Source of the DNA: Capsicum annuum
Taxonomy: Eukaryota > Streptophyta > Magnoliopsida > Solanales > Solanaceae
DNA: 64,000 nucleotides
Assembly: GCF_002878395.1 (NCBI RefSeq)
Contig: NC_061121.1
Span: 48,652,107-48,716,106 of the forward strand
Reading direction: 5' to 3'
The notes below the pieces were generated by a model. The model was not told the origin of the DNA. It did not search any database and saw nothing but the letters and a program-made list of their open reading frames with translations. This document shows positions 15,230 through 51,844 of this stretch, one piece after another. A program made the position numbers and the translations under genes. Position 1 is the first letter of the stretch. Each line of letters begins with the position of its first letter.

Positions 15230-15886
15230 TTAAGCGTGTGTGATATGATGTATATTTGTGTTCTACCTGATTATGTTGTTGTAATATATGTGATATGTAT
15301 ACTAGAATTGTTAGTGCAAACAATGTGGGCTACCGTTGTGGGATATTTTCTACTTTCAGGTGATATATCCTTAGTGTATATTTTATAAGCTTTATTTTTG
15401 ACTTTTCTCGGTCGGCCTATGATACCTACTAAATACAAGTGGACCATACTCATGCATACTGTGCACTTTCGATGCAGGTCCTAGTTCGAATACACCTCAG
15501 CTTTGTAGATTCGAGCAACATTTGGTGTTTTCAAGATAGTGGTTGACTTTCAAGCGGCCAAATGTATTCTATTACCTTTTTTATAAATATGTCTTTACTT
15601 TATTTTTGAGACAAAGATTCTCTTGTATTTGGATATCTTATGTATTTCTGTTGGATTCAAGTTGTACTATATACATTCTTATATTTCTAACATCAGTTTT
15701 TGGGAATTATGGTTGAGTTGTAGATTTTGTACCCTTCCACATTATGTAGTTCAACTTTGTTCTAGAAGCTTTACCTCGGGGTATTTCTGTCTTTTGACCC
15801 TTTTAGTATCAATTTGGGTGATAGACTTACTTGTCAAGGTTCGCCGCGACGAGTGCCATCATAACCCTTGATTTTGCGTCGTGATA
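15230..15886 (+). repeat. 3' LTR of chromovirus C, second part
   Basis: 15230-15234 is the right TTAAG duplication made by element B. From there the sequence continues LTR C and ends with GCGTCGTGATA at 15886, matching the end of the solo copy (GGGTCGTGATA at 28235). Together with 5191-7545 the LTR measures about 3.0 kb, and its last base pair CA is changed to TA. Confidence 0.85.
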
Positions 15887-22431: not shown

Positions 22432-24409
22432 TGTTACAACCCAAAAGCCTAGGTCATGATGGCACTTATCACAATCTAGCCTTAATATAACTAAGCTAAA
22501 ATCCCAAAATGAAAAAGAAGAAAAAAATTAACTAAAGATAAGTTAAGTGAGACTTCTGGAGAAAAGTCAAGCCAATACAAGAATAATTATAGCAGAAGTC
22601 TGAAAGAAATATCATAAATCCCAAAATCTGAACATAAGTGTAAAACATATAAACAACCATCCAAATAGTAAATAATATATACTCTATCTCTGAGTCATAA
22701 GTAAAGACAAATTAAGATAGATGAGGTCTGAATTAGCCCCGAATCCTAGAGTGCATCAGTATCTCAAAAGCTCAAAATCTTCGCACAAAGATCATCCTCC
22801 ACGTATGGTATTCAAACTAGGATCTTTTATCCAAAGGGTATAGAAGGAGTGAGTACGATCCACTGGTACTCAGTAGGTATCATAGACTGACTAAGCAGAG
22901 TAAAAAATAAGATAAGTAAAGAATATACTATGAACACGCAACTTGCACGAAGAAAAATAACCAGAAAAAAGGACAAGCATACATGCACATAAATCTAAAA
23001 GCTAAGTTCACATAAAATAACACATGAGGTGAAAAAATACAATGCAATGGATGATGAAGTGAATAGTTAAAAGTCATCAAATGACTTTCTGTATACACCT
23101 ATCGAGCCTTAATGAGTCCAAAATAGGACCCATGGGTGTTAACCCATAACCTACCTCAAAATGACAAAATTTGAGCCTAAAGTCCTTCAACATGGAGTCT
23201 TCCCCTTTTGAACAGCCTCAAAATCAACTACATCATTCAAATATCACATCTATACATTAAAAGAAAGCTAATGAAACCCATATTGCCCATATATAAGCCA
23301 AGTTCGAAAAAAATTTAAAAATAAAAGGGGTAAAATTAAAATTTTATTTTAGAAATATATTCCCAAGGTTAAAGGAATCTATAATTGAAAACCCATGTGA
23401 AAACTATTTAAAATAAGGTCCAAATTAAAGAAAAACCATTTTTATTTTTTTCAAACAATCCTCAAAACCTATGTTAAAACAAAGATTAAAGAGTGTTTTG
23501 ATGTTATGATTTAATTAATAATAATACAAATAAGATTTTGGAGCTTACCCAAGCTCAAATAGTGATGAGAATCGTAGAAATCGCTCAAACTCAAAGCTCA
23601 AAGACCAAAAATGGTGAAAAATCACAAAAATAAAGCATTTATACTGTTATGTGAATAGTACCTCACGAACATGATCAACCCTTCATGTTAGCGAGGGTCA
23701 ACTTTGATCAGCCAATAAAATTAGCCTTCGTGTTTGCGACCAATGCTTTGCATTTGCAAAGGTCGATAAATTAGGCCTTCATGTCCGCGATGGTCCTATC
23801 GTGTTTATAATGAACAGAGAATTCATTATCTGCATTCGCATTCATGGTACCTTTTTTGCGAATAAGGACCTGGCATGCACCAGATATCCACAAACCAACT
23901 GAGTTTGCATACTTTAGAAACCTTCAAACGGACCATTAAGATTTGTTTTGGACACCATCAAAATAAACTATATATTCTACTAAGCTATCCTTGATGATTT
24001 TAATTCAATGGGGACATCGTATTTTCAAAAAAAAAAATATAATTTTTAATAAATTAATCCTCGAGACCCCTCTTAGGAAAATTTTACTAGTTTTTCAAAC
24101 GAAGGGTCAAAATACAAACTAAAGGCTATGAACCCAAACCAACCCCGATCCTATTTCAAATTTTTTTCTTAGATCTAACAGAATAGTTCAAATATCCATC
24201 CTTCACTCAGGACATCAAATATTGACCAAAGTCAATTATGGAACATTTAAAGCTTTAAAACAACTTAAACTCTCCCTAAAACTCACCCAAAGGCATTGAG
24301 AATCATTATAACCATCCTTATACTCCAAAATCAACATTTAACAACTACCAGGGAGGGAAATATATTCAAAAAATATCAAAAGTAAAATTTCACAAATCAG
24401 GTCATTACA
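22432..24409 (-). repeat. 3' LTR of element D (1,978 bp)
   Basis: Runs on the minus strand from TGTAATGACCTGATTTGTG (24409) to GGGTTGTAACA (22432). A U3 patch at about 23660-23880 repeats TTCGTGTTTGCGAC and TTCATGTCCGCGATGG-like words. A weak purine-rich tract (TAGTGGATGT) adjoins it at 24410-24419. Confidence 0.83.
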
Positions 24410-24419
24410 ACATCCACTA

Positions 24420-26080
24420 CCAAGACTCTAGTTTATCTTTAAACAAAAGGCAAGGAAATACCCGAATCTGTATAGAGTTGAGGGTAACTATTATGCATGC
24501 CAAATTTGACCTCCCAACTAGCCTCCTCAATAGGAAAATGTCTCCAGTAAACCTTAACCACATGACTATATCTAGAACACAGTCATCTAACATCTTCAGA
24601 TAAAATGGACACCGACTTCTTGACAAAGATCAACCTCTCATCCAACTGAACTGAGTCCTAACGAAGCATGTGATACTTATATAAAATATAAAGCCGGAGC
24701 ATAAATACATGAAAAACTAGATGAATGGCTGAAAAATCTAGAGGTAAGGACAACTTACAAAAAACCTCCCAAACAGTCCAAAGAATCTCAAATGGCTTGA
24801 TATACCTGGGGTTAAGCTTGCCTCTCTTACCAAACCTCATCACGCCCTTCATGGGTGATATGAAGAAAGACTCAATCATAATCCCAAACATTAAGGCACA
24901 AAGCTTACGGTCTGCATAACTTTTTTGCCTACTTTAGGCTTCCTAAAGCCAATCCTAAATCACCCAAACATTTTCCAAAGACTCGTGAAGCAAGTTGGTA
25001 CCGTGGGGTCTAACCTATGAAATATCTCAGTAGGAGATCAATAACGCCTATCATACAACTACCTCAAAAGGTGCCACCTCAGTACTAGAATAGTAGTTCT
25101 ACTCTAAGTAAACTCCACTAGGGATAAATGTTGCTCCCATTGACCCCTAAAGTACATAATACAAGAACAGAGTATATCCTCCAAAACGTGAATAATCCTT
25201 TTCAACTGACTGTTGGTATGAGGGTGAAAAGCTATGCTAAAGTCAACCTTAGTGCCCAAATCCTCTTGAAATATTTTCCAAAAACTAAAAGTGAACATTG
25301 AGCCTCTGTCTGAAAAAATAGACATGGGTACTCCATGAAGGAAAACTATACTATCTCATGAACATACATAGGGGCCAACCTCTTGGTGCTAAAGAAAATC
25401 TAAATAGGTACGAAATGGGTAGACTTGGTCAATTGATCCATGATAACCCAAAAGCTGGCACAACCATAAGAAGTACAAGGCACCCTACTCACAAAATCCA
25501 TAGTGATCGATTCCCACTTCCACTCAGGAATGGGTAATCTTTGAAGCAAATCATCCATCTCAGATGCTCAACCTTTACTTATTGGAAATAGAAGCAACGA
25601 GCTACAAAGTTAGCCACATCATTTCTTATAACACCCCACTAAAATATTGCTTCAAATTATGATATATCTTTGTCACCCTTGGATGAATAGAATATAGGAA
25701 ACAATGCACCTCTACCAAAATCAATCACACTAATCCATCAATACTAACATAAATTCATGACCCTCCATCCATAAAATCCCATTAAAATCAATAGATATTG
25801 CATTAGCCTCTCTACTCAACCCCTTATATCGAGTCACCCTTAAACTATTATTATGAAACTGGTGAGTCTGAATCTACTCCATCAAAGTGATATAGCATCA
25901 ACAAAGGCTAATATATGCTAAGGTGTAAAAATATCGAGCCTAACCAGTTAGTTAGATAAGCATTGAACCTCTAAGGCTAAAGCCAGCTGTAACTATACTA
26001 GCCTTTCCCAGATAGTAAAAAATAGTGAGATCATAATCCTTAAGCAACATAATCCAACACCGCTAACTCATATTAAGATC
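24420..26080 (-). pseudogene. Element D integrase and chromodomain remnant, plus the RNase H 3' part
   Basis: The chromodomain is at about 24430-24620 (VVKVYWRHFPIEEASWE). The integrase C-terminal part is at 24658-24891 (ISPMKGVMRFGKRGKLNPRY). The core is at about 25000-25480, with FSDRGSMFTFSFW (Asp kept); in NSQLKRIIHVLEDIL the catalytic Glu is replaced by Lys. The N-domain HPRVTKIYHNLKQ lies near 25650. The RNase H end, with LLKDYDLTI, runs up to the solo LTR at 26080. There are multiple stops and frame changes. Confidence 0.82.
26076..26080. repeat. Target duplication AGATC of the solo LTR, left copy
   Basis: AGATC precedes TGTAATGACC at 26081 and recurs at 28236-28240 after GTCGTGATA. 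Exact 5-bp match. Confidence 0.92.
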
Positions 26081-28235
26081 TGTAATGACCTAAAATTTTA
26101 ATGAAATATGCAAAATATGTTCTTTTGTGTGATTTAACTATTTTACCTTTTTTTATAGTTGCATTATAGTATTTCTGGGGTGTGGGGGTTATTGGCATAA
26201 TTCTTGATGTATTTTGGTGTTTTTATGCGATATTGTGTTTTTTAGAGGCTTAAAGAGCCTTATTATGGACTTCTCTGGTTATGTTTTGATCCATGGATGG
26301 ATGATTGATTGAACTATGCCAGTAGATGTGGAATATAGATTTTAGGGAGGTAACATATTTGGTATGGTTTTATGGCTTTAAATCTCATTTTGACCCTCGA
26401 TTTGAAAAATATTAACTTTGGGTTTTGGGGGTCAACTTTGTTGAAACAACATTTTTTTAAAAATTTGATATCTCCATTGAGTTTGTAGCATCAAATTTAG
26501 TATGGATATATAGTTCATTTTTATGTATCGGATTTTGAATGAGTCCTGAGGACTTAGTGAAAACTTGTAAATTCACCAAGTTTCAGATGTCATCTATCTT
26601 GACAGAGGGTACTCCAATTGCAGCATACCTATGGAGATCGTCCTATTTATTCCTGCTACTTATTAGTGTGATTGCACACCTGGTTGTGCAATTATAGAAT
26701 TTGTGAGACTCGTATGGGTATAAATAGACCTCTTAAGTCGCGGATTGGCCATTTCTCAATCATTCTTGAGAGTCGAATACCTTAAAATTGTGTGAGATCT
26801 TAAAAGTAAAGTTTGTGGGTACTTAGAAATCTATATTAACATCCTTTTCTTGATTCTCTAAAGGATTTAATGTAAGAATTCACCCTTTTCTTAGTGAATT
26901 TCTTGATTAATTTCTCTAAAATTCAAGACCTTAGGGCTTAATTTTAAACTCCAATTTCAGTTGAATAATGCCTAATCCTATAATTACAAGTTTTTCTCAA
27001 TTTAACCTTTAAAACAACTTTGATTCTTGATTTTTAGAATGGATTTCAAAGGTTTTACCAGGTAAAGTTTAAGAATGGTTTCAATTTGAACCTTATTTTA
27101 AACTCGATTTGACTTGGGTTTTCAGCTTTAGGTTTCTACGGTTATGGGGCATTTTTGAAATGAAGTTTTCATTTTGCCTTTCTATTTCAAAAACCTATTT
27201 TAGGAGTCTGTTTTGACCCTAAATCAAAAGCAGGCAATATGGATATTATTGGCTTTATTTTGTTGAGTAGATTCTATATTTCTTTGTTTTAGTTAATTGC
27301 AGTATCGTTTGTGAGAAGTAAAGTCATGGGTTAAAGTGCTGCAAACCGATTTTGTTCTTGAGGTATGTTATGGCTTAACTCTTCAGACTGGGCTGGTTAG
27401 TTAATTTGTATACAAAATGCATGTTAAGGGGATGAGAACCAATCATGAATTTAGATATCTTAATGTGTTGGATATCTTAACGTGTTGTGCCTATGTGGGG
27501 GCCTATATGTGGTATAACTTTTGTTTTGAGACAATGTGTAATATGTGTTACGGTGTGGGGTCTTTTGTGATGTTGATAGCCTTATAATTATGTGAATAAT
27601 TGTATCTTGTGATGAAAAGGTGTGTTGTGGTACCCTTGGTGTATTGTGATGTATTCATACTTATAGGCATATGAAACATGTGGAAATTCATGGATGGTTG
27701 GAAATAATGGGTAGATATTTGCTCACATGGTTGTAGAAATACATCTTTGTAGTTGGTTGCAGAAAAAAATTGTGTGATTGGTTGTGAAAGTAATCATTGT
27801 GATTGGTTGTGAGCATTACATCCTTATATCATACTTATTCATTAAACATTGGTATCATCATGGAAACATTTGTAAAACACTAGAAACACCTTTTAGAAAA
27901 CCCTTCCTGAGGAATATGCTGAGAAAAAGATATTGTGACACCTTATAAAACCCTCTCTAGGGATGTGCCGGGGAGGTTATATGGATATATGTATTTGAGT
28001 TGAACTAAATACGTTCATATACTATTGACATCAGGTTTTGGGAGTTATGGCTGCATTTTGGTTTACATTTCTTTCCGTATTTGAATACTTATATGGTTAG
28101 ACTTTGTTCTAGAAGCCTTACCTTGGGGGTATTTCTATCTTTCCCCCTTTTTGTGTATCACTTTGGGTGGTTGACTTAATTGTCAAGGTACGCCGCAATA
28201 AGTACCATCATGTCCCTTGGATTTGGGTCGTGATA
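26081..28235 (+). repeat. Solo LTR of family C (2,155 bp) inside element D RNase H
   Basis: Begins TGTAATGACCTAAAATTT and ends GGGTCGTGATA, with perfect AGATC duplications on both sides. The RNase H reading of D continues across the insertion once one AGATC copy is discounted. No internal domain remains, so unequal recombination between the LTRs of a former full element is the simplest history. It lacks several hundred bases present in the split C LTR (junction near 28003) and has the 209-bp unit once. Confidence 0.93.
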
Positions 28236-29430
28236 AGATCCCAGTGATTGAACAAGTACTGAATCCTATGATGATCCGACAAAATATAGCAAGGAACTCT
28301 ATACAAGTGATGCCACCACAACTTCAATACAAACACCATGGCAGCAAACTCCAAATCATGGGTAGGGTAACTTCTCTCATGAGGCTTCAACTGATGAGAG
28401 GCATAAGCAAACATTCTACCCTCCTGCATCAATACCTCACCCAAGACGACAACAAAAGCATCACAGAACATAGTAAAACCCACACATTCCTTTGGAATGG
28501 TCAAAATAGGGGCCAAAGTCAACAACTCATTGAGCTTTTCGATTCTCCTCTCATAAGCACTAGACTATTGAAATACAATATTCTTCTAAGTCAATTTGGT
28601 CAAAGGAGCCATAGTATATGAGAAACCCTCCACAAACTACCGATAATTACCTGCCAAACCAACCAAAATTTAATTTTCAATAAGAGAAGTAAGTATAGCC
28701 CAATCACAAATCACCATTATCTTGGCTAGAACAATCATAATATCATCCTTGGTCCCCACATGACCTAAGAAAGAGAAGAATTCAACCACAACTTACACTT
28801 AGAAAACTTGGCATACGACTTCTCATCAAGAAACCTCTAAAGTACAATCCTTATGTATCTCACATGGTCAATCTTATTCTTGGAATAAACTAAGATGTGA
28901 TGTATAAATACAATCACAAATGAGTCAATATATGATTGAAATACCTGGTTCATCAACTCCATGAATACTATAGAGGCATTGGCCAACCCAAAGACATGAC
29001 CAAGAACTCATAATGACTGTATTGAGTTTGAAAAGCCATACTTGGAACATCAAAAGCTCTAATTGTTGACTAGTGCTACCCAAATCTCAAATCAATCTTT
29101 AAAAACATCGAATCACCCTGAAGCTAGTAAAAAAGATCATCAATGCAAGAAAAATGATACTTGTTCTTAATTGTTACTTTGTTAAAAGTCCTATAATCAA
29201 TACACATATGTATAGAACCATATTTTTTCTTTACGAACACGAAAGGAGGACCCTAAGGAGATACACTAGGTCTAATAAACACCTTCATCAACAAATCATG
29301 CAACTGTTTCTTCAATCTTTCAACTTAGTTGGGGCCATCCTAGAGGGAAAAATGGAAATGGGCTTGATATCTGGATCTACATCAATAGCAAAATCAATGT
29401 CATAATCCGAAGTCATACCAGAAAAATCAA
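28236..29430 (-). pseudogene. Element D RNase H 5' part and reverse transcriptase
   Basis: RNase H is open over 28208-28525 on the minus strand, with FCDAFVVVLGEVLMQ, SHQLKPHERSYPTHDLEF and SDHHRIQYLF. RT follows upstream (28640-29430). Its active-site box reads FIHHILVYSK (about 28885-28915): both catalytic Asp residues are His, so the enzyme is dead. Farther upstream, IDVDPDIKPISIFP and MAPTKLKD mark the RT start. Confidence 0.85.
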
Positions 29431-31455: not shown

Positions 31456-31640
31456 TTCTTCTTCTTGGTGCAGTATCTACCAACTCTCCCACTATTCTGT
31501 TGATCCCCACTATGCTTTAAATACCTGAATCTCTTACTCTGCATCTTTTAAATTTTAGCCTGTTTCTCCTATCATCCTCTACTGGCTATATATAAACCTC
31601 CATCTGTGATAGTAAATAAGTAACCTCCATCCAATGTGTG
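31456..31640 (+). other. Junction between D and the Athila-like element E
   Basis: A short low-information stretch. Its right part, near 31600-31640, reads as the degraded lead-in to the E reverse transcriptase. No target duplication was seen at the left end. Confidence 0.4.
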
Positions 31641-32227
31641 TCTAAGAAAGGGGGCATGATTGTAGAGAAAAATAGAAAAAATGAGTTGATTCCACTCAGG
31701 CCCGTGACAGGGTGGAGAGTTTCCTGGACTATCTTAAGCTCAACTAATAGACTCTGAAGGACCACTTCTCGATGGATTTTATGGATCAAGTGCTTAATCA
31801 GTTGGTGGGAAGAGGTTGGTATTGTTTTTTTGATGGGTAATCAGGCTATAACCATATTTATATTACTCTAGAGTATCAGGGGAAGATGATGTTCACTTGC
31901 CCGTATGGTACTTTCGCTTTCAAGTGGATGCCATCTGGTTTATATAATGCACCCACCACTTTCCAATGGTGCATGATGTCTATATTCCTCGACATGGTGG
32001 AGGATACCTTGGAGGTGTTTATGGATGATTTTTCAGTGGTAGGTGATTCTTTTGAGCTATGTCTGGTAAATCTGAGTAGAGCGTTGGAAAGATATGAGAA
32101 GTTTAACTTAGTGCTGAATTGGGAGAAATGCCACTTGATGGTGAAGAAAGACATTATTCTTGGTCACAAAATTTCAGCTAAGGGAATCGAAGTCGATTGG
32201 GCAAAAGTCGAGGTTATTGAGAAACTA
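31640..32227 (+). pseudogene. Athila-like element E reverse transcriptase, part before the LARD
   Basis: Starts with KKGGMIVEKNRKNELIP and changes frame near 31740. It continues FTCPYGTFAFKWMPSGLYN and the active-site box VFMDDFSVVGDSF (Asp pair kept), ending LGHKISAKGIEVDW and VEVIEKL at the LARD insertion. 31886-32227 is open. The motif set matches the Athila/Tat branch of Ty3/gypsy. RT resumes at 41678 in the same frame after one copy of the AACTA duplication. Confidence 0.9.
32223..32227. repeat. Target duplication AACTA of the LARD, left copy
   Basis: AACTA occurs immediately before TGTAACACCCC (32228) and immediately after GGGGTATTACA, at 41673-41677. Exact 5-bp match. Confidence 0.95.
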
Positions 32228-34037
32228 TGTAACACCCCAAAATTGAGTCCCAAGATGTCACACGGTGCTTAGGATCACAAGTGACTCCAAGATAACCTTT
32301 CTATTGGCATAACTCATAAGCAACTGAACAAAAAGTAAAAATCTATACAAATCTGCTGAAAATAACTCTTTTCTGGATATGATAGATACAAAACTAAAAT
32401 TATAAGATTACAACTCTGCTTTTACAACCAAAACTGAAATGGAATATATTAACTTCTAGTGACTGTCTACCAAGACTCTACTAGTACTGACTGTAGGTAG
32501 CCGGGTTATGACTCCCGACTAACCCAACTCAATACAACTGAATAAAGAAACTACTAAACTTCTCAAATTATATAACTAACTCAAGCCCTTGAATCAAAAG
32601 GACTCACCACCTACTAACTAGATGCCGCAAACTGACTGGATCTGAAGATATACACTATACCTTGTACCTACATTCTAAGAAAATGTAGCCCATATACAAA
32701 TATGTGGGTCAGTACCATGGAAACGTACCCATCATATGGGGGTGCAATACATATATAAAATAATATCTTAATATCACCACAGTTTATAAAATTATGCATG
32801 TTGATATAAATGACTCACTTAGCTCAAATTAAAATCATCATAATCATAAGAGAGTAAAATATATCGGGTTAAACATATGAATCATCATAGTAAATCACAA
32901 TTCACATTCATCTCGATTCCAAATCATCAAAGCAATCTTAGTGAAATCTGGAATATTGAATACATCATAAATCAACTTTTCAAATCTCTTTTAAATCAGT
33001 AAAATCAATCTAAGAATGAGGGACAACTCTTTGGGAGGTTCTTCTAACCGACATGTACACCATGTAAGAACCCATGATGTCCCACGACTTTCCCCCGTAA
33101 GGTTAGGGTGGTCCTGCCATTGCCATCAGTGTAGAACAATCTCATATCAGTGATCACTATCTCAATTTTTCACATATAGTGGAAGTCAATGTCTCAACCT
33201 ATGGTGGCACGTAGTTCTGGAGTATGAAACCATAGTAACATACCCAACTCAGTTCTAAATACTACTCCCAATACTATGCTCAAAATCTCAAGAAAAATCC
33301 ACTTTAAGGGTAATCTCATATTTCTTAAGTTAAATAAATGATAAAATCTATAACTCATCTCATAAAGTGGATTTTAACTCTGTTGTGACCAAAAGGTCAA
33401 ATCTTTCTATACTTCATCAAAAATAGTCTAACCATGGGTGCATGTAGCACATAAATTCTCAAAACAACAATCTCAATATGGGTTAATGACCCTTATAGCG
33501 ATACTTAATAAAAACATTTCAACATTTATGCTTTATATCACAAGCATGCATAATTTATACAAAATCTGAAAAATTTCAGCCTTTAATCATAGCAATAATC
33601 TCAAACTCATGGAGTTTATTTTCTAAACATTCAAAATAATCATAGTATCTTGAACAACAACATAGGATAAGAGTTATCACTTCAAATTCATGATAAAACA
33701 TGTAAAAATCATGTATCTTTGTAAAATAATGCAAACTTTGGGTACAAGAATGAAAGGGTGCTCTTGTTCATAACCCCACATACCTTTATGGTAACGGATT
33801 CGTTGAAAGATTGGACCCTCAATGTTGATTGTGTAACCCTAGTTGTTTTTCTCCTTTTGTGCTCTTGGATGATGAACTGAGACTGATAGTAGAGTTATGA
33901 TGTGTTTAGAATCTATTAAATTTGTAAGGTTAAGTTTAGGGGTGTGTAAGGAGTGCCAAAAGACTTAGTTGCCCTCAAAATAACCTAAAAATAGAGTTTT
34001 TAAGTCACTTGAAACCATAAGATATGCACCGCATATG

Positions 34038-34042
34038 ATATA
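34038..34042. repeat. Target duplication of the nested Athila-type LTR, left copy
   Basis: ATATA (34038-34042) pairs with ATATC (35289-35293), one mismatch. The uninterrupted partner LTR reads GATATC here, so ATATC is ancestral. Confidence 0.8.
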
Positions 34043-35288
34043 TGATCTTGGATGTATTTATTCACCTAAGCACCATAATTTATCCATATTTTAGCTATGT
34101 TTAGAGAACAAAGTGCCTAGTTTCTTATGTTTTTACTCTACTTCTATATAATTGAGCTAACCGATGTGATTTGCATGATTTCAGGCATTAATGAGGTAGA
34201 TGAAGACATTATGGGACTATGAAATGTGGATGGCATATGATACAGGAGAGAGTAGCAATCTGGACCAAATGTGGTGCCTAGAAACTACAATCTGGACCAA
34301 ATGTGGCGCCAAGAAACTATGTCCAAGACCAATTTATAATTTATAATTAGTTTAGGTACCTAGAAGGCAATTATGAGAGGAAAGATCATTAAAATGCTTA
34401 ATGCTGAATTTTTATGGGGGATTAAATTATTCTGTATTATTCAAAGAGAGGAGAATAGCCGCTTAGGGTGGCGAGAGAGAAAAATGTTTCTTCTCTCTTA
34501 CTTTCACCATTCGCACACCAAGATTGTCTTCTAGTTTTTGGTATGATGAATATATTTATGATGATTTTCGTTTTATGCATGAGTAGCTAAGTTTATTATT
34601 TAGGGTTATGGAATCCTTGTAGCATACAATCTATTACTATGGGTTTTGAATTCATTATGTATTGACTTGCTTGTTTAATGATCTCTTCGCTTATCTTGAA
34701 TTCTCGTGGTTGCAAACATAGAGGATATGCCTTAAAATGCAACTTGTTCGAAATAAAGGTTGTTGTTCGGAAAAGAGAGTAGTGACAATAAAATTGGATT
34801 ACCAACCCCTATTTCATAAGTTAATGCCTTAGCAGGATTAACTACTTGGAGATTTCGTATTGTTTTTTGTATACGCTTTTGATTCGAGAGAACTAAAGTG
34901 AATTAGTCCTAGATGGTTCAAAAACACTAGGATTATGTTATTAAATACAATACATTTCTATGTAAACACGATGCATGTATGAATTCGTAATGCTCATAGT
35001 TAGAAAGTATTGAAAACTATAAGGTGGACATAACCCTATCTTGCTCTTTCTCTGAATTTGAATACTACTAGACTTATTTCATCTTGTTAAATTGATACCA
35101 TTAATTAGTGAACTGAATCAAATCCACTCTATTTATTTTACGGAAACGAACTATTAAAATTCAACTAATCTGCATAAAACTTAATTAGCACCATATTCCC
35201 TGTGGGATTCGACCCCAACCTAGTTGGGTTATATATTTGACAACGACCGCTTACTCTCTCGTAAGAGAGGTGTAGTTTAGGTATATCA
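34043..35288 (+). repeat. Athila-type solo LTR (1,246 bp) inside the LARD 3' LTR
   Basis: Starts TGATCTTGGATG and ends GGTATATCA. The end region has TGTGGGATTCGACCCCAACC and ACAACGACCGCTTAC, words typical of Athila-group LTR ends just before the tRNA-Asp primer site. No primer site or coding follows. It sits within the first unit of the 33-bp minisatellite. The short-period frame upstream (GCATGAGTAGCTAAG, TTAGGGTTATGGAATCC) also fits Athila LTRs. Confidence 0.85.
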
Positions 35289-35315
35289 ATATCTCCTATA
35301 TTTACATAGGCACTG

Positions 35316-35414
35316 CATATGATATCGCCTATATTTACATAGGCGCCACATATGATATTGCCTATATTTACATAGCCGCCGCATATGCTATCGCATATGA
35401 TTTCCAGTGGCCAT
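35316..35414. repeat. 33-bp minisatellite in the LARD 3' LTR
   Basis: Units start CATATG at 35316, 35349 and 35382; the first unit (from 34032) is split by the solo LTR. The core GCCTATATTTACATAGGC is self-complementary. Confidence 0.9.
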
Positions 35415-35799
35415 GTGCGATTGGTTAGGAAACACATTCTAATTCGTAAAGCCATAACTCCTAGCTCGGGTATTAGATTTTTGCAAAATTGGTATCATTT
35501 GAAAGCTAATTCAATTATCTACAATTTGATAGGTCTTGAGATGAAAAGTTCCATGTATATTAAGAGATATATACGTTTGAAGTTGACCCTTGTAGAATCG
35601 AATATCAAACTTTGGATTAATCAATTGGTCTTAGATCAACCTTTCTCTTTGTCATTGCTATAAACATTTCCCACCTCTAAACTACTCCATAGACTAGGAT
35701 AATTATCATGCAACTTGTATTCACGTGATAATCACTTGGATTAGAGCTTAGATGCACAGGAACAACGGTTAGAATTCTAGCACAAAAATATGTATTACA

Positions 35800-35833
35800 T
35801 TATCTCCCCCTTGGGAACATTCATCGTCGAATG
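35800..35833 (-). promoter_or_regulatory. Polypurine tract and palindrome of the LARD
   Basis: Minus-strand AAGGGGGAGATAA (35800-35812) abuts the 3' LTR. The imperfect palindrome CATTCGACGATGAATG (35818-35833) lies upstream, as in element B. Confidence 0.85.
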
Positions 35834-36059
35834 TGGGTAATTAACCTGAAACACAGAGGAATATTAGTATTCAAGCTATCATGTGTAACTGATAGAACTG
35901 AATCACTGGATCTCAAGAATAATGAGCTACTGAACTGATCTGCAAATGTATGAATCCTCAAGAAAAATAACGATATGGCTAAGATAGAAACGAGAGTGGC
36001 AACTTATGAGTAACCATTACTTTGCACTGAATCTGATCTCATGAGAAAGGATGAGAGGT

Positions 36060-36115
36060 TTATGACATGAAAACTCGGGGTATTACAACATCCCTCTCTT
36101 GGGATCGTTAGTCCC
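36060..36115 (-). repeat. Second polypurine/LTR-start-like junction inside the LARD
   Basis: On the minus strand, AAGAGAGGGATGT is followed at 36087 by TGTAATACCCCGAG. This is the same arrangement as the true polypurine tract and 3' LTR start 288 bp away, but it is not followed by LTR-length sequence. Confidence 0.65.
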
Positions 36116-38510
36116 CAAATGATAATACTTTGATTAAAATACTAGGAAGAGACTGTGATACTACACAGGATACTTACGAACTGAATCATGACTTAACATC
36201 TGAAACTGAAACTGATGCATGAATTGAGCTGAATTCATAATTTAATTGGACACAAACACATTGCCTCTTGGAATGTACATACGTATAAGACTGCGGATAG
36301 TAACACTAGATGGAAAATTAAGAATCTATTGGACCTTATCTCCTTGCTTGCTAAACTAGATTACAGGCTATATGGACTGGATCATACTGACTACCCATAC
36401 TCAAATGGAGTATTTCTTTAGCACTTTTCTATGAAATTCTATTGATATTAGGGAGCAAAGAATTTTGGGCATGCTTTGAACAAGACATTTGACTAAGAAA
36501 TTACAACATTGATATAACTCTATAGCATGGAATATAATTATATAACTCACAAACTAGGATAGGATTGCTAGGCCGTAGGCAACACAACTTCTTACTTTCA
36601 AGCTTAGCATCACTTCTCAAATGCTATCTCAACTATACTATTACCCTTAAATACCATTCTCATTTGATTCAACTTATAATTCTCATATTGGCACTGTGAA
36701 ATTTTTCTACTAAGGTCTAAACTAAACTAAGTTCTCTCACCATGATCAAGCCTAATACTAAATCACAAGAAACAACATTCCAAACCACAATACTAGTCTA
36801 AACCACAAGGTTCAATATTCTATATCTTCTTAGAGCTCACACCCTAAGCATAACATGACTTACCACTTCAATGACTAATTTAAAACTCTTGATATGGATT
36901 CACTAGTGCATATTGCATTCATCATCTTACACCCAACATGAAATTCAAGCCTATCATTAAAAATCACAAATAACTTTAAGGAAAATACCCTAAAAGGCAT
37001 ACTCCACATATTCTCTAAACCTTTATCAACAATAATATTCTTGCGCTCTTCTTAAAAACACACACACAATTTCTAATTAACCATGACATGTATCAAAGAC
37101 TTGGCCTCAATCTTACTTCACACTTTAGCCTTAGATAGAAAAGCATAAATAATCTTTCTTAATGAGGGTCATCAACTCTTTCACATATAAACCATTGCTT
37201 ATCCACTATCATCACCACTATCTTAACATAGGAAGAGGTCACCCAAGAGCTAACACATATGAACCAGAAGCACGAAAACTACAATACATAACATTAACAC
37301 TTATCTTTGTCCTGAGGAATAAAATATCAAAGGCATAGATTCATTAAAGAAAGCTAAGCTGAGGACATGTATGATATAATGTGAACTTCACTAGTATCAT
37401 GAGTTTAAAAACTGGTCATACTCTGAAACATGAATTTATACTTATCATGAGCTATTCAACATAAGACTGGAGTTCATAGATTCATAAGAGATAACTCGAA
37501 TCACAGAGTGAAGCTGTTACATGCTTGCTAGAAGCTGAGAATGGACTTGAGCACACATGATAGGTATAAGCATAGGCCTATGGCATAGATTTATCATGCA
37601 AGTGATGGATTTGGTGTTGTAATGACTGAAATCCAAGGAATAATCTAGCATAAGAAGGGATCACTATCTCATCATAACTCATTATTGACATGAATCACAA
37701 TCTAATTCTCAAAATTTGGTTTGGTTCTTCACTAACCATCTCCCCCTTAGGTCAAAGCTGGTATTCTAAGCAAGTTGGTCTACTCTATATCCTCAAGATT
37801 AAGCCATAATTTAATCATTCTAATATCTATACATAAATGCTAAACTCACAAGAATAAACTAATTTCGAACTTACCAACTTCATTCTTGAATAACCCATCC
37901 ATATGCCATCCTTAACTTTCTAGCTTTAATAATCATCATTAAAGACTTACACTCTCATTTGCAACCATACCTACATCTCTAATCACATAATCATAACCTA
38001 CCAAGATCACACCTCTATTCTTATATTTTTTTCCCCAAACTATGAGAATAATAATCATACTTAAAAGGCTCAACATCTTTAATCATAACTCCTTAACTTA
38101 GCTATCAAGAACATCATAAATTATCTAACTAGCCTTTCTCCACCTAGAAACTCAACATCACTACTAACCACACAATATGCAATAATCCTCAAAAAATAAT
38201 GCAACCCTATAGCACCTTGGGCACATCTCTACACCATACTTAAGTACAAACACATGATCTTACACTCTTGCATACACTGTTCAAGCATACTAGATCACCT
38301 CTATATCACTAGCATCAACAACCGAACCATCAACTATTCAAACTTAATGTCTAGAGCTAAACATGATGTACAACCCAATCTCACACACAATTCTCCCTTT
38401 AAAACTATATAACACAGCATTAAGAAAGACTAGTACACAATGACAATCGATCATAATCATATGCCCAAACTTCCAACCAACACAAGAACAACAAGATAAA
38501 CAACAAGTTT

Positions 38511-38649
38511 CTAGTGAATCAAAATAGGCCTCACACGGCTTCACTAGACTTTGGTTTTGTATTTTGAACAAGAAATTTAGATGAATAACAAAACAACTAT
38601 GCTAGTGAATCAAAATAGGTCCAACACAGCTTCACTAGACTTTGATTTT
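38511..38649. repeat. 48-bp direct repeat with internal inverted repeat
   Basis: Units 38511-38558 and 38602-38649 each carry CTAGTGAA and, 20-odd bases later, TTCACTAG: an 8-bp inverted repeat able to form a hairpin. The centre differs (GGCCTCACACGG against GGTCCAACACAG) while both stems are unchanged. Confidence 0.88.
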
Positions 38650-39332
38650 TCATAAACACATTGATAACAAAAATTACGTAATACAAGAGATAGAAACTTG
38701 ACACACAACATTCAATGATCTAAGAAGACACTACTCTATCTTAATTTAATAACTCATAAGAACAAGGGTATAACTTCAAATCTAATGGACTTATAACATA
38801 CTAGAAGGCTTCTCTCAAGCCGTTTTATGAAACTTCTGAAACTTCTGCTAGCAATTATAAAAGAATTATCTGGAGAGGAACTGGAACTTGCCGAACATGT
38901 TACTTCAAGAACATATATAGAGAATTATAGATTATCATTATGGATTATGAGGAGAAATTCAAAAGCATATCTGACTCAGGCTTTGTGCACGATTTCTACA
39001 AGCCTAATAAAGCACTTCAATTTTTGAAACTCAAAAGTACTGATAGGATACTTTCTAGCTCTCTTACAGTCCTATAACTATTTATGGAGAATAAAGCTCA
39101 ACTATTTTTGATACCTCGGAAGTAAGGCACAGATGGCCTGACTAGAGTAAGATGAGAATCTGTATAAGTTTCTTAGAGAAATTTTCTATAGCACGATTTA
39201 AGACTTGAAAGAATGGAGACATTTCCTAAATACCCTGTAGCCTCTCGAAGAAAAGTATAGACGTCTCCGTACCATTCTGCAAGACTCTACTAGATATGGC
39301 TTCATAAATACCCTAGGACACTTGAACTCTGT

Positions 39333-39344
39333 GCTCTGATACCA
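39333..39344 (-). promoter_or_regulatory. Primer-binding site of the LARD (tRNA-Met type)
   Basis: Minus-strand TGGTATCAGAGC, four bases downstream of the 5' LTR end. It matches the 3' end complement of plant initiator tRNA-Met, the usual primer for chromoviruses and many copia elements. Confidence 0.93.
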
Positions 39345-39348
39345 AGTT

Positions 39349-41672
39349 TGTAATGCCCCGAAATCAAGTCCCGAGACATCATACGGTGCTTAGGATCACA
39401 AGTGACCCCAAGCTAACCCTTCTACTGGCATAACTCATAAGCAACTGAACAAAAAGTACAAATCTATATAAATCTGCAAAAAATAACTCTTTTTTGAATA
39501 TGATAGAGACAAAACTAAATTTACAAGATTACAAATCTGATTTTACAACCAAAATTAAAATGGAATACATCAACTTCTACTGATTGTCTATGAAGCCTCT
39601 ACTAGTATTGACTGTAGGTAGCCGGGTCATGACTCCCGACTAATCTAACTCAATACAACTGAATAAAGAAAATACAATACTTCCTAAACTGTATAACTAA
39701 TTAAAGACCTTGAATCAAAAGGACTCATCACTTGCTGACTGGATGCCGCGAACTGACTAGATCTAAAGATGTACACTTTACTTTGTACCTACATTCTGAG
39801 AAAATGTAGCCTACATATGAATATGTGGGTCAGTACCATGGAAACGTACCGCGCATATAGGGGTGCAATGCATATATAAAATAATATCTTAATATCATCA
39901 AAGTTTATAAAATTATGCATGCTGATATAAATGACTCACTTTGCTTGAATTAAAATCATCATAATCATAAGAAAGTAAAATATATCGGGTGAAACATGTG
40001 AGTCATCATAGTAAATCTCAATTCACTTTCATCTCGATTCTAAATCATCAAAGAAATCTTAGTGAAATCTGGAATATTGAATACATCATAAATCTACATT
40101 TCAAATCTCTTTAAATCAGTAAAATCAATCTAAGAATGAGGGATAAATCTTTGGGAGGTTCTTCTAACCGACATCTACACCATGTGAGCACCCATGATGT
40201 CCCACGACTTGCTCCCATAAGTTTAGAGTTGTCCTACCCTTCCCATCAGGGTAGAACAATCTTATCTCAGTAATCCCTATCTTAATTTTCCATATATAGT
40301 GAGAGTAAATGTCTCAACCTACGGTGGCACATAGTTCTGGGGTATGAAACCGTAGTAACATACCCAACACGGTGCTAAATACTACTCCCAATACTATGCT
40401 AAAAAATCTCAAGAAAAATCCACTTTAAGGGTAATCTCATATTTCTTAAGTTAAATAAATGATAAAATCCGTAACTCATTTCATAAAGTGGATTTTAACT
40501 CTGTTGTGACCAAAAGGTCAAATATTTCTATAATTCATCAAAAATAGTCTAAACATGGGTGCATGTAGCACATATATTCTCAAAACAACAATTTCAATAT
40601 GGGTTGATGACCCTTATAGCAATACTTAATCAAAACATTTCAACATTTATGCTTTATATCACAAGCATGCATAATTTATACGGAAATCTGAAAAATTTCA
40701 GCCTTTAATCATAACAATAATCTCAAACTCATAGAGTTTATTTTCTAAACATTCAAAATAATCATAGTATCTTGATAGACAACATAGGATAAGATTTATT
40801 ACTTCAAATTCATGATAAAACATGTAAAAATCATGTATCTTTGTAAAATAATGTAAACTTTGGGCACAATAACGAAAAGGTGTTCTTGTTCATAACCCCA
40901 CATACCTTCATGGTAATGGATTTATTGAAAGATTGGACCCTCAATGTTGACTGTATAACCCTAGTTGTTTTTTTCCTTTAGTGCTCTTGGATGATGAACT
41001 TAGACTGATAATAGGGTTATGATGTGTTTAGAATCTAGTAAATTCGTAAGGTTAAGTTTAGGGGTGTGTAAGGAGTGCCAAAAGACTTAATTGCCATCAA
41101 AATAACCCAAAAACAGAGTGTTTAAGTCACTTCAAATCATAAGATATGCGCCACATATGATATCACATATATTTACATAGGTACCGCATATGATATCGCC
41201 TATATTTACATAGGTGTCTCATATGATATCACCTATATTTACATAGGCGCCGCATATGCTATCGCATATGCTTTCAAGTGGCCATGTGCGATTGGTTAGG
41301 CGAAGCACTCTACTTCGCAAAGCCATAACTTCTAGCTCGGGTATCGGATTTTTGCGAAATTAGTATCGCTGGAAAGCTAATTAAATTATCTACAATTTGA
41401 TAGGTCTTGTATGAAAAATTTCATGTATATTAATAGATATACACTTTTGAAGTTGACTCTTGTAGAATCAAATGTCAAACTTTGGATGAATCAATTGGTC
41501 TTAGCTCAACCTTGCTCTATGAAATTGCTATAAACATTTTCCACCTCTAAACTACTCCATAGACTAAGATAATGATCATGTAACTTGTATTTACATGATA
41601 ATATCTTGGATTAGAGCTTAGACGCGCAAGAATGATGGTTAGAATTCTATCACGAAAATATGGGGTATTACA
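39349..41672 (-). repeat. 5' LTR of the LARD (2,324 bp)
   Basis: Minus-strand TGTAATACCCCATATTTTCG (41672) to GGGGCATTACA (39349). U3 carries the 33-bp minisatellite at 41154-41285, about 390-520 bp from the LTR start. Confidence 0.93.
41154..41285. repeat. 33-bp minisatellite in the LARD 5' LTR
   Basis: Four units start at 41154, 41187, 41220 and 41253 with an exact 33-base period. Inner halves include CCTATATTTACATAGG, self-complementary. Differences among units cluster in the bases flanking the palindrome. Confidence 0.93.
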
Positions 41673-41677
41673 AACTA

Positions 41678-42420
41678 CCTCCTCCTATGTTAGTAAAGGG
41701 AGTTTGTAGTTTCCTTTGTCATACATGGTTCTATCATTGATTAATTAAGGACTTCTCCAAAATTTCAAACCCACTTTGCAAGATTTTGGAGAAAGAGGCC
41801 TAGTTCATATTTGATGATGATTGCCAGAAGGCATTTGAATGCCTTAAGGAGAAATTAGTTGCTGCCCCAATCATTGTTGTACCAGATTGGTCAATGCCAT
41901 TCGAAATTATTTGTGATGCAAGTGGAGTGGTGCTTTGTGCTATGCTTGGTCAAAATTAGGAAAAAATATTTCATCCCATTTACTATGTGAGCAAGGCATT
42001 GAATGAGGCTCAGAAGAATTACACTGTGACTGAGTAGGAACTTCTCATGGTGGTTTATGCATTTGAGAAGTTCTATGCTTATTTAATGGGGACCAAGGTG
42101 GTAGTGAATACAAACCACGCTGCTTTAAGGTATTTGATGGCAAAGAAGGTTGCTATTCCAAGGCTAATCAGATTAGTGTTTCTTCTTCAAGAGTTTGAAT
42201 TTGATGTCAAGGATAAAAAAGAATGCAAGAATCAAGTTGCAGATTGCCTGTCCAGACTTGAGGGAGATCAAGTAGTCGAGGATGATTTTGAAATTGATGT
42301 TACATTTCTATATGTGAAAATCCTATTTGCTATGCTTGAAAGAGTATCTTGGTACACAGACTTTGCAAATTTGTGTGGTAAGTGAAATTATCCACGAGAA
42401 TCTTTTCTTTCACCAAAGAA
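41678..42420 (+). pseudogene. Element E RT thumb and RNase H, part after the LARD
   Basis: Continues the RT frame with PPPMLVKGV, then RNase H motifs ICDASGVVLCAMLGQN and FHPIYYVSKALNEAQKNY, and an open segment 42047-42385 with TNHAALRYLMAKK and VADCLSRLEGDQ. Two stops are visible (after GQN and after VTE). RNase H keeps the first catalytic Asp. The DCLSRLE end marks the join to integrase. Confidence 0.88.
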
Positions 42421-43620
42421 AAAAGTTCCTTCATGATGTTACACACTATTCTGGGATGAGCCATATTTATTTTAGTGGTGTGCAGATAACATTATCAGGC
42501 AGTGTATCCCGGTGGTAGACATGTTGAGTATCCTGGAAGTTTGTCATACTTCTCTGACTGGGGGTCACTATGCAGGTGACTGTACTATGAGAAAAGTGCT
42601 ACAGAGCGGCTATTACTGGACGACCTTATTCAAAGATATATATGATTTTGTGCGGATATGTGACCAATGCCATAGACAAGGGTCAATCTCAAAGCGCCAT
42701 GAAATACCCGTGAAAAAAATAATGGAAGTAGAGTTGTTCGACGTCTGGGGAATTGACTTCATGGCACCCTTTTTGAGCTCTTATGGGTTGAAATATATCT
42801 TGGTTGCCATCAATTATGTATCCAAATGGGTTGAGACTATTGCCTTGGCTGGTAATAAAGGGAAGAGAGTTGTTGCATTCCTTAAAAAGAACATCTTCTC
42901 TCGCTTTGGGGTACCATGTACCATCATAAGAGATGGTGGATCATATATTTGCAACTGGGTGTTCCGAGCTACTTTGGCAAAATACGGTGTTAAGCAACAC
43001 AAGGTGGTAACTCCATATCACCCACAGACTAGTGGGCAAGTGGAGATTCCAAATCGGGAGATAAAAGGTATTCTTGCCAAAATGGTGAATGTGAGTAGAC
43101 AAAAATGGTCTAGGAAGCTGGATGATGCCTTGTGGGCATACAAAACGGATTTCAAGACAACCATTGGCATGTCACCATACCAGTTGGTCTATGGAAAGTC
43201 ATGTCACTTGATTATTGAATTTGAACACAACGCACTGTAGGTAATCAGGAGGCTAAATTTGAATTAGAATGAGGTAGGAGTGTTGCGACTGGGTAGATGA
43301 ATGAGATTGATGAGTTCTGTCCAGGGGCTTAAGAAAGAGCAGACTTGTACAAAGAAAATATGAAGGAGTACCATGATCATAGGATAGAAAAGTGAGACTT
43401 TCAGAAGTGTGATTGGTTATGCCTCTTAAATTCAAGACTGAAGATCTTTCCAGGTAAACTTAAGTCAAAGTGGTCTGGCCGATTAAAAGTTAACCAAGTC
43501 TACTCATTTGGGGTAAAGCATTTTCCAAAGAGGGAAATATTGTCAACTTACATCCCACAAAACATAAAAATAGAGATAAAAATTGTTCAACCAACATAAC
43601 CAAAACATTGTTCAGCTATT
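42420..43620 (+). pseudogene. Element E integrase (242-residue open frame) and tail
   Basis: The longest uninterrupted pol frame of the window is 42512-43240. The N-domain has the His pair ([12 protein letters not shown]) and Cys pair (CDQCHR). In the core, the first catalytic Asp is Asn ([11 protein letters not shown]), the second is kept ([12 protein letters not shown]) and the Glu is kept ([12 protein letters not shown]). [19 protein letters not shown] closes the core. A stop at 43238 is followed by the eroded tail PGKLKSKWSG and VYSFG to about 43600. Expected 3' parts (terminal region, LTR) are absent; at 43650-43740 it abuts the oppositely oriented element F. Confidence 0.9.
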
Positions 43621-49240: not shown

Positions 49241-51844
49241 ATGCAGATGGAAAATTTTGGATTGATTCCTATAATATCGAACATTTTCCATCCAATCACC
49301 TTTCTTCTCCTCTTTAGAACTTCTATGGCTTCCTTTACCTACACATCTGATAACCCTGTAGACAAAATAACAAGAAAAGTATCTTGATCACCAAGAAAAA
49401 ATAATTGTGAATATGGAGGGAGAGCCTTAAGCTACAAGTTAGGAGCTTCTTCAACTAAGGCCTTGGGTGATGGATCGATTGGCCTATTCAATGGCTTGAA
49501 AGGCACTTTTTTCATCTCAATCACTGCCAAATTCAAAACCTAGACTAATTCCAATTCTTCCATATCTCTATAAAGATCATGACCTATCAAATCTCGCTCT
49601 AATAGATCATCAGATAACAATAAATGCCAATTCAAAGCAAGATCAATAACCAATATAGATGACAATTCCTCATACATAGCTGGCAATTTCATCACCTTGT
49701 ACACATCAAATATTTCTATTTTATCGTGCACTGGCATTGTGATTTTCCCAGCTGCTACATCAATCAGTGACTATCCCATTACTAAGAAGGGTCATCCTAA
49801 AATAAATGGAATAACAAGATCAATCTCAAAGTCAAGAATTACAAAATCTACCAAAAAGATTAAAGATCCTACTTGAACCAACACAACTTCAATAAAACCA
49901 TCCGACCTAGTAAGTGATCGATCTGCCTACTATAAAATAACAGTAGTGGGTTTAGGACTCCTAAGACCTATCTTCTGGTACCATGATGTGGGCATAAGAT
50001 TTATGTTAGCTCCCAAGTCATACAATTCATGTGCGCAGATGTTCTGTCCAATGGTAATCTACAAGGTAAAACTACCTGGATCCTTAACCTTTATGGGCAA
50101 TTTGATTTGAATCTTGGACGTGCACTCTTGAGTAAGTGCAACTGTAGCATACTTGGTCAATCAATTCTTGTTTGCAACTATTTCCTTTAAGTATTTTGTA
50201 TATTTTGGCACACTCTGCAAAATGTCAATAAGAGGAAGATTCACTTGAACCTGCTTCAGAAGATCTAAAAACCTCTTGTAACTAGCTTTCTCTTGATGCT
50301 TCCTTGCCCTTTAAGGAAAAGGTAAGGGAAGAGTATTCTTCTCCACATGAATTTCTTCACTTTTCTCCTTTTTTCTTGACTTCTTTCTCTGTATTATTTT
50401 TAGCACCCTCATCATTGATTGTGGGTCTAACTTGCTCCTGAACTGTCTCTTTAGTTTGCAGCCCACTCTTTGTTGTAACCATATTTACCTGCTTAGGATT
50501 TGCCTCTATATCGCTAGGTAATGCTCCTTGAGGTCTTGTATTCTGTGCTCTTGTAATTTGGCCCAACTATAACTCTAGATTTCTTGTAATCAATTATTGA
50601 CTCTTCTACTCAGCTGCAAACTGTGCATATTGAGTCTTAATTTTAGTTGCAAATTGCAGTTGTTGAGCCATAAACTGCTTTATTAATTCCTTCATATTGC
50701 TAGTTTGAGCAATAACTTGATTTTTCTGAGCCGGCTGTGGATTTGGTTGCATTTTTCCCTTGTACTGATTTGTATTCTATGCCTGATTTCCACCCCATGA
50801 GAAATTGGGATGGTTCCTCCAAATGGGATTATAAGTGTTACCAAAATTTATTATCCCTATAGATTCGTGTTTCCCATATAGTTGGTAGAATCTTGATTAA
50901 CAGAATATGCATCTGTTGTGTGCTCACCACTTTCGCAAGTCTCACACCAAGAATTTCCCTGTTGGTCTACATTTATTGTGGCTGCTGGTTGTGTAACACC
51001 TAACTTTATATTATTAAATTGAGTAATCATATTATTTTGCAAGGATGTGATTTGTGCCTGTAATGCAGTGAACTAATCTACCTCCAATACCCCTGTAACC
51101 TTTCTAGGAGTACTCCTCGAATATATATGCTAGTCAGGGTTCCTTTGTGAAATCCGATTCAGCAGTGTGTACAATTATTCATATGTCTTATCAAGAGCCT
51201 ATCCACCTGCTACTAAAGCAAGGAGAATCTTTGTGTTTGGCTCCAATCCCACAATGAAAGTATGCACAAGAACATTATTTGACTGATGATGGTGAGGGCA
51301 ATTTCTGAGCATACCCTTAAATCTCTCCCAACCTTGGTCGAGATTCTCTACTTCTTTCTGTCTAAAACTCAAGATGTCGTTCCTCAAGCGTGCACTCTTT
51401 CAATATGGAAAGAATCGAATAAGAAATTTCTGAGCTAGATCTTCCCATGTAGTGATGGAGATTGATGGTTCAACATATAACCACCTTTTTACTTCCCCCA
51501 TTAGAGAAAAAGGAAAGAGTGTCAATCTGACGTAATCAGAGTTTACCCGTTTAGGAATGTAAGTATCGCTAATTTCAAAGAAGGACTAATATATGCTACT
51601 GCGGATCGTCATGTGAAAGGCCATGAAATTGCCCCGCTGAATTTAGCAATTGCACCATATTTTGCTTTAATTCAAATCGACCTCCTGGTTTAGGCTTTAG
51701 AATACTACTCATTACATAGTTCATTAGTGGGATTGACATCTCATGAATAGGTCTAGCAGCTGGTTGAATAGGAATAACTAGAATAACAGGAGGCAGAATA
51801 TTTCTGGCATTTGGATCAGCTGATTCATTTCTTTGTTTAGCCAT
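49240..51844 (-). pseudogene. Element F gag and protease
   Basis: Gag starts MAKQRNESADPNARN at 51844 and continues with FELKQNMVQLLNSAGQFHGL, WEDLAQKFLIRFFP, RNDILSFRQKEVENLDQGW and a knuckle CETCESGEHTTDAY near 50920, whose last Cys is Tyr. A basic linker with TKSGLQTKET follows. Protease (about 49780-50100) has YDLGANINLMP (active-site Asp kept), VDFVILDFEID and IPFILG. The product would form the virus-like particle and process it. Several stops. Confidence 0.85.

What the first reader, a model, noticed from the sequence alone, without database searches (positions are those of the whole stretch)
32228..41672. Complete non-coding LTR element (LARD) with all replication signals but no proteins
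LTRs of 2,324 and 2,321 bp (after removing a nested insertion), primer site, polypurine tract and a perfect AACTA duplication enclose 3.55 kb without gag or pol. It sits in the reverse transcriptase of an Athila-like element, whose frame resumes after the duplication. Ends, leader words and the palindrome point to a chromovirus helper related to B. This looks like a distinct non-autonomous family that may be undescribed.
Basis: partly seen in the sequence, partly recalled or inferred. Interest (0 to 1): 0.75.

Follow-up and report, generated by a model that had tools for sequence, protein, structure and literature searches.

The report
Protein-less jumping element borrowing helper machinery
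This is a retrotransposon that makes no protein but keeps all the copying signals; hundreds of related copies lie in the same plant genome, and its RNA shares a start hairpin with a common protein-making family that probably copies it.

Summary
Confirmed. Window 32229-41672 (minus strand) is a complete LTR element without gag or pol: 2.32-kb LTRs, AACTA duplication, primer site, polypurine tract; a 1,246-bp insertion splits its 3' LTR. It is a family. 38 other scored places carry most of the interior at 92-94% identity; a 32-mer occurs 678 times in the 3.21-Gb assembly, reversed control 0. Of 15 copies examined, 11 have both outer ends mapped: 8 perfect target duplications, 2 at 4/5, 1 unmatched. 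None of 15 interiors is coding. The window copy has a private ~440-bp deletion. End signals match chromoviruses of this genome (Tekay/Del by recall and literature): 27 of 30 loci share the 3' signature; 5 of 7 fetched 5' regions show primer site and a leader hairpin with compensatory changes. Interiors diverge like a burst (K 0.065) while LTR U3 middles differ strongly (mean K 0.35-0.52): one body, exchangeable promoter modules. All 15 copies hold a fossil second polypurine tract/LTR start about 322 nt before the interior's end. A LARD-type family, probably mobilised by these chromoviruses; no close helper was found. The kind is known; non-autonomous Del derivatives in pepper are, from recall, published.

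The parts
32224..32228 (.). target-site duplication AACTA, left copy
32229..35799 (-). 3' LTR, interrupted by a nested insertion; pieces 32229-34042 and 35289-35799
34043..35288 (.). later nested insertion of 1,246 bp inside the 3' LTR, TG...CA ends, flanks ATATA/ATATC; resembles a solo LTR of another family (inference)
35800..35811 (-). polypurine tract AGGGGGAGATAA abutting LTR start TGTAATAC
35812..35836 (-). conserved 3' palindrome/signature upstream of the polypurine tract (CATTCGACGATGAATG), shared with the coding chromoviruses
36074..36121 (-). internal fossil of a second 3' signature, polypurine tract and LTR start, 322 nt before the interior's end; seen in 15 of 15 copies examined
35800..39348 (-). 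non-coding interior, 3,549 bp (3,979-4,197 bp in the nine other copies dated)
38460..38475 (-). approximate place of the private deletion; 35 of 35 other copies measured hold 337-507 bp there, mostly 443
39220..39296 (-). leader hairpin shared with coding chromovirus leaders (candidate packaging/dimerisation signal)
39333..39344 (-). primer binding site TGGTATCAGAGC (initiator tRNA-Met type, recalled)
39349..41672 (-). 5' LTR, 2,324 bp, TGTAATACC...GGCATTACA
41673..41677 (.). target-site duplication AACTA, right copy
31502..32227 (+). host element: reverse transcriptase part (RVT_1), interrupted by the insertion
41675..43240 (+). host element continues: RNase H, then integrase (zinc-binding and core); a few stop codons

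Best explanation
A LARD-type non-autonomous LTR retrotransposon family. Steps shown by sequence: intact cis signals (LTR ends, primer site, polypurine tract), target duplications in separate copies, a non-coding interior, hundreds of interior copies, near-uniform interior divergence, and end signals plus a leader hairpin shared with coding chromoviruses (Tekay/Del type) of the same genome. Steps inferred: host RNA polymerase II transcribes the element from its LTR; helper Gag recognises the leader hairpin and packages the RNA; helper reverse transcriptase primes on initiator tRNA-Met and copies it, sometimes switching template to other packaged RNAs and so exchanging U3 (promoter) modules; helper integrase inserts the cDNA. 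The non-coding body probably serves as spacer and RNA scaffold. Its 3' end records an older recombination that left a fossil polypurine tract and LTR start inside.
For: Copies: 39 scored places including itself; the 38 others are 92-94% identical over 2.3-2.6 kb of the interior. 678 matches of a 32-mer with up to 2 mismatches, 0 for the reversed control. Target duplications: 11 of 15 copies examined had both outer ends mapped; 8 perfect (window included), 2 at 4/5, 1 unmatched. Non-coding in 15 of 15 interiors: longest frame 70-114 aa, within the resampled range (means 86-95, maxima 121-180); no gag/pol in Pfam for the window copy. Helper link: 27 of 30 integrase-SH3 loci carry the same 3' signature; 5 of 7 fetched 5' regions contain primer site plus hairpin; leader match E 8e-13. 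Three of these loci, tested, show the integrase SH3 domain followed by a weak chromodomain match. Hairpin: 94.4% of cells paired over 18 sequences, 26 double-change cells against 8.5 shuffled (0 of 500), slid versions at most 65% paired; leaders not used to build the model also match it. Burst with module exchange: interior K 0.065 +/- 0.006 between nine copies, within-copy LTR K 0.062-0.085, U3 middle mean K 0.35-0.52 between but 0.06-0.08 within copies; LTR breakpoints near 275 and 1628.
Against: No close helper was found. In 21 of 30 chromovirus loci an LTR piece resembles one of this family's; 20 of these are 72-83% over 96-479 bp, and the 21st (L038, 93.6%) is a family LTR lying upstream in that locus, not its own LTR; 9 of 30 show nothing. 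Shared LTR-end/leader stretches are 70-80% identical. One copy with both outer ends mapped (L015) has flanks AATAT and GACAT, no duplication. No transcription or packaging data were available. Hairpin stability alone is modest: z -0.7 to -3.3 in six well-framed sequences, while a seventh (L055) was cut off and scored 0.03. Two covariation measures, the number of pairs with double change (101 of 500 shuffles reach it) and further pair types (464 of 500), do not exceed shuffles, and most double changes fall on one split between the two groups, so few are independent events. The 39 scored copies are best matches, not a random sample. Chromodomain matches are below Pfam's cut-off (E 6e-5, 4e-4, 0.03), and the name Tekay/Del was not tested by a tree.
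Confidence: 0.87

Rival explanations
1. A decayed autonomous chromovirus whose gag-pol has rotted beyond recognition.
For: Ends and leader are of the coding chromovirus type.
Against: Interiors are 92-94% alike between copies, too young to have lost all trace of coding. No gag/pol in six frames of the window copy. Of 212 protein-level rows between four interiors and 33 chromovirus loci plus the window's flanks, 203 fall in the last 360 nt (the 3' signatures), 6 in the leader hairpin, and 3 elsewhere at E 0.044-0.048.
Confidence: 0.03
2. A chance-looking composite: two related LTRs around a patchwork of later insertions.
For: One later insertion is present in the 3' LTR, and the interior holds a fossil 3' end of another element.
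Against: The interior, in the same order between LTR ends of the same family, occurs in the 14 other copies fetched, though L010 and L015 lack part of the 5' end.
Confidence: 0.02
3. The shared leader hairpin is not a packaging signal but serves translation or transcription of the coding elements, and remains in the non-coding family only by descent.
For: The function of the hairpin is untested; leaders can carry translational elements. Most of the covariation lies on one deep split.
Against: The non-coding family has no frame to translate, yet 94.4% of hairpin cells remain standard pairs over 13 family and 5 coding leaders.
Confidence: 0.35
4. U3 differences reflect old, slowly diverged subfamilies rather than module exchange.
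For: LTR ends and the first 600 nt of interior also vary more than the body (mean K 0.09-0.12).
Against: The interior body coalesces at about the age of the insertions (K 0.065), while U3 middles differ by mean K 0.35-0.52 (single pairs 0.06-1.03) with sharp edges, so the parts have different histories.
Confidence: 0.15

Closest known systems
LARDs (large retrotransposon derivatives; definition seen in passages of PMC7215508)
   Same: LTRs, core domain without protein products, structurally uniform family, presumed trans-complementation by autonomous elements
   Different: Chromovirus-type ends, LTRs of about 2.1-2.7 kb in the nine other copies dated and interior of about 4.0 kb; body shared by several U3 types; fossil internal polypurine tract
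Non-autonomous Del derivatives of pepper (Park et al. 2012, Plant J; recalled, paper not held)
   Same: Probably the same host genus and the same helper lineage; may include this very family
   Different: Could not be compared; no sequence seen
Coding Tekay/Del-type chromoviruses of this genome (L023-L052, with 5' ends L053-L055, L058, L059)
   Same: 3' signature, LTR start TGTAATACCCC, primer site, leader hairpin
   Different: They encode integrase, SH3 and a chromodomain-like end (three loci tested); interior about 5.06 kb in three loci (my arithmetic) and unrelated to the non-coding body
BARE2 / BARE1 of barley (passages of PMC3735527)
   Same: A Gag-less element whose RNA is packaged in the partner's particles, with conserved dimerisation and packaging signals
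   Different: Copia superfamily; BARE2 cannot make Gag, while this element has no coding at all
Dasheng / RIRE2 of rice (recalled; only a search listing was seen)
   Same: Non-autonomous Ty3-type element with coding partner; recombinants between the two are reported (recalled)
   Different: Different lineage and host

Membership tests
LARD | two LTRs with primer site and polypurine tract | tested here: met
LARD | large internal domain without protein products | tested here: met
   3.5-4.2 kb in 15 copies
LARD | structurally uniform multi-copy family with conserved interior | tested here: met
LARD | conserved RNA secondary structure | tested here: met
   leader hairpin only, on three of five measures; the rest of the interior was not tested
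LARD | mobilised in trans by an autonomous element | not testable with these tools
   shared signals only
Tekay/Del chromovirus (autonomous) | gag-pol with chromodomain | tested here: not met
Tekay/Del chromovirus (autonomous) | cis signals as in coding chromoviruses of this genome: 3' signature, LTR start, primer site, leader | tested here: met
   that those loci are Tekay/Del rests on recall and on a paper naming this lineage as predominant in Capsicum annuum, not on a tree
TRIM | short LTRs and almost no internal domain | tested here: not met
   LTRs 2.3 kb, interior 3.5-4.2 kb
TR-GAG (gag-only elements, recalled) | gag frame present | tested here: not met

The most novel reading that the evidence does not exclude
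The family is a promoter-swapping parasite: a fixed non-coding body and a fixed helper-type packaging hairpin travel with interchangeable U3 modules taken from helper or sibling RNAs in mixed particles, and the internal polypurine tract, kept at about 322 nt from the LTR, still primes plus-strand synthesis as a second start.
Probability: 0.25. Interest if true: 0.62.

Novelty: new member of a known kind. Interest (0 to 1): 0.42.

Why it matters
Packaging signals of plant Ty3-type elements are, as far as I recall, poorly known. A coding-free family cannot keep a leader structure for translation, so what it shares with its presumed helpers narrows the search to a 77-nt hairpin plus the 3' signature, which can be probed directly. 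The contrast between one young body and several old U3 types also makes template switching between element families measurable in a large crop genome.

Tried and rejected
Rejected: decayed gag-pol, single copy, patchwork of later insertions. Element B of the window as helper: its LTR-like end at 2245 is not followed by a primer site. LTRs whose match reaches the window LTR's first base were looked at as possible helpers (4 of the 6 such places other than the window's own): L060 proved to be another family member, L061 and L062 are not followed by their own primer site, and L063 was uninformative. The other chromovirus remnant in the window (minus strand, about 10-15 kb) shows no leader likeness; its 5' part appears lost. 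The 270 nt after the fossil polypurine tract match no LTR start held (best E 0.38).

Literature: ten searches. I saw neither this family nor a Tekay leader hairpin in their listings, but only open papers are held and listings are capped. PMC7076952: abstract, passages and section 16 seen. PMC3042944, PMC7215508 and PMC3735527: passages. PMC5668417: abstract and outline. All other papers: listings only.

The count of the leader pattern did not complete.
Full report
What is there. The window belongs to a 3.21-Gb assembly of 80,840 contigs, twelve of them carrying most matches seen. The element lies on the minus strand at 32229-41672 between AACTA copies. Its 5' LTR (39349-41672) is followed by the primer site TGGTATCAGAGC and its 3' LTR (32229-35799) is preceded by AGGGGGAGATAA. 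A 1,246-bp insertion (34043-35288) with TG...CA ends and ATATA/ATATC flanks splits the 3' LTR. The two LTRs, compared in pieces, differ by K 0.106. The host is a Ty3-type pol: reverse transcriptase before, RNase H and integrase after the element. 'Athila-like' is recalled, not tested.

It is a family. A search with the interior scored 39 places, the window included (of 17,363 first-look candidates). The 38 others are 92-94% identical over 2.3-2.6 kb, and 35 of them also show the 5' part in pieces of 82-92%. In all 35, 337-507 bp, mostly 443 bp, lie between the two parts, which the window copy lacks; its deletion therefore looks private. A 32-mer from a conserved spot occurs 678 times with up to two mismatches, against none for the reversed control. 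These are interior matches, not proven full-length copies; at 8.7 kb each they would make about 6 Mb. Of the 14 copies fetched at length plus the window, 11 of 15 had both outer ends mapped. The 5-bp target duplications are perfect in L011, L013, L014, L016, L018, L021, L022 and the window, 4 of 5 in L009 and L019, and absent in L015 (AATAT against GACAT), which also lacks the end of its 5' LTR, the primer site and part of the leader. Five copies (L010, L012, L015, L017, L020) were left out of the LTR dating. In L018 the start of the 3' LTR was set by me, not found by the search.

It is non-coding. Six frames of the window copy with X at stops give no gag or pol in Pfam. In 15 of 15 interiors the longest stop-to-stop frame (70-114 aa) is within the range of resampled sequence, whose longest frames average 86-95 aa and reach 121-180. 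Protein-level comparison of four interiors with 33 chromovirus loci and the window's flanks gave 212 rows up to E 0.05: 203 in the last 360 nt, where the two 3' signatures lie, 6 in the leader hairpin, 3 elsewhere at E 0.044-0.048 (the full list).

The helper lineage. An integrase end found in the window (SH3_Tf2-1 match) gave 150 scored places of 175,381 candidates. Three stop-free frames from these loci show SH3_Tf2-1 followed by a chromodomain match below Pfam's cut-off (E 6e-5, 4e-4, 0.03). I call them Tekay/Del from recall and because that lineage is reported as predominant in Capsicum annuum (PMC7076952); no tree was made. Of the 30 loci taken, 27 show a GAATGTTCCCAAGGGGGAGATATTGTAATACCCC-like 3' end with at most 4 errors in the searched word, the same signature as here. 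At seven loci I fetched the expected 5' end; five contained it (L053, L054, L055, L058, L059), two windows fell elsewhere (L056, L057). All five have the primer site (exact in L055, L058, L059, one mismatch in L053 and L054) and a homologous leader (best E 8e-13 for the first three). The leader folds into one long hairpin. Over 18 sequences (13 of this family, 5 coding) 24 pairs are 94.4% standard; 26 cells have changes on both sides against 8.5 in shuffles (0 of 500), and slid versions pair at most 65%. Against this: two of the five measures do not exceed shuffles, single-sequence stability is modest, and the double changes lie mostly between the two groups. A covariance model built from 15 of these leaders finds the hairpin in all 18, in L060, in a second family leader in L012, and in three flanking elements of other kinds (L062, L015 and, with the top of the stem lost, L013); L062's follows a different LTR end. 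Leaders not used in building it and of this family are L012 (two), L016, L019 and L060. No match up to E 1 falls in the 30 chromovirus 3' loci; in the window the only matches are this hairpin and, weakly, its opposite strand.

How the family grew. Between nine copies the interior body differs by K 0.065 with a spread of only 0.006, close to the within-copy LTR divergence of 0.062-0.085. That is the pattern of a burst from near-identical masters; with recalled rates of 6.5e-9 to 1.3e-8 it falls at roughly 2.4-6.5 million years for these nine, and the window copy at 4.1-8.1. U3 middles (LTR 351-1050) differ by mean K 0.35-0.52 between copies (single pairs 0.06-1.03) but 0.06-0.08 within them. 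At least four U3 types sit on the same body, at a threshold of 82% identity (the L017 row there was cut by guessed coordinates and is not used). A genome search with the window LTR shows the same modularity: 29 of 40 scored places begin at query 268-275 and 11 end at 1628. Sampled chromovirus U3 regions resemble different types at 72-83% over 96-479 bp in 20 of 30 loci. I read this as template switching between packaged RNAs; recombination of this kind during bursts is documented for Onsen (abstract of PMC5668417).

A fossil. In 15 of 15 copies a second 3' signature, polypurine tract and LTR start lies inside the interior: at 322 nt before the interior's end in 12 (one of these, L019, with an indel), 321 in two, and 307 in L018, where my interior end was set short. 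It aligns with chromovirus 3' ends over 49-51 bp at 76-82%. The simplest reading is that an older 3' end was buried when a new chromovirus-type 3' end was acquired. A working second plus-strand start cannot be excluded, since common descent alone explains its constancy.

Verdict. A real, multi-copy LARD-type family, very probably dependent on chromovirus proteins, with the direct helper family still unnamed. The kind is known; BARE2 (passages of PMC3735527) is the experimental precedent for particle sharing with conserved packaging signals. Non-autonomous Del derivatives in pepper are, from recall, in print. The parts worth following are the shared hairpin and the exchange of U3 modules.

Noticed in passing
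window 51284-51390 (+): Rfam snoR71 (plant C/D-box snoRNA), 53.5 bits against a gathering score of 40.
   Followed up: no
window 38498-38558 and 38591-38649: A direct repeat of about 61 bp (85% identical) inside the interior, with CTAGTGAA/TTCACTAG ends.
   Followed up: no
window about 10013-15232 (-): A chromovirus remnant with integrase SH3 end, polypurine tract and LTR start at 10008-10025; a second LTR-like piece (14613-15232) runs straight into gag-like sequence (recalled look, not profiled), so the leader seems lost.
   Followed up: partly
window 1-2245: LTR-like stretch related at 67-75% to the element's LTR, ending GGTGTTACA with a short tandem repeat of the end and no primer site after it.
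   Followed up: partly
L062:522-598 (+): Leader of a different family, after an LTR end ...GTGACA with primer-like TTGGAATCAGAGCC, carries the same hairpin; the hairpin may be general in this lineage.
   Followed up: partly
window 2283-7288 and 24387-29419: Two long related regions arranged partly inverted and partly direct, 68-77% identical.
   Followed up: no
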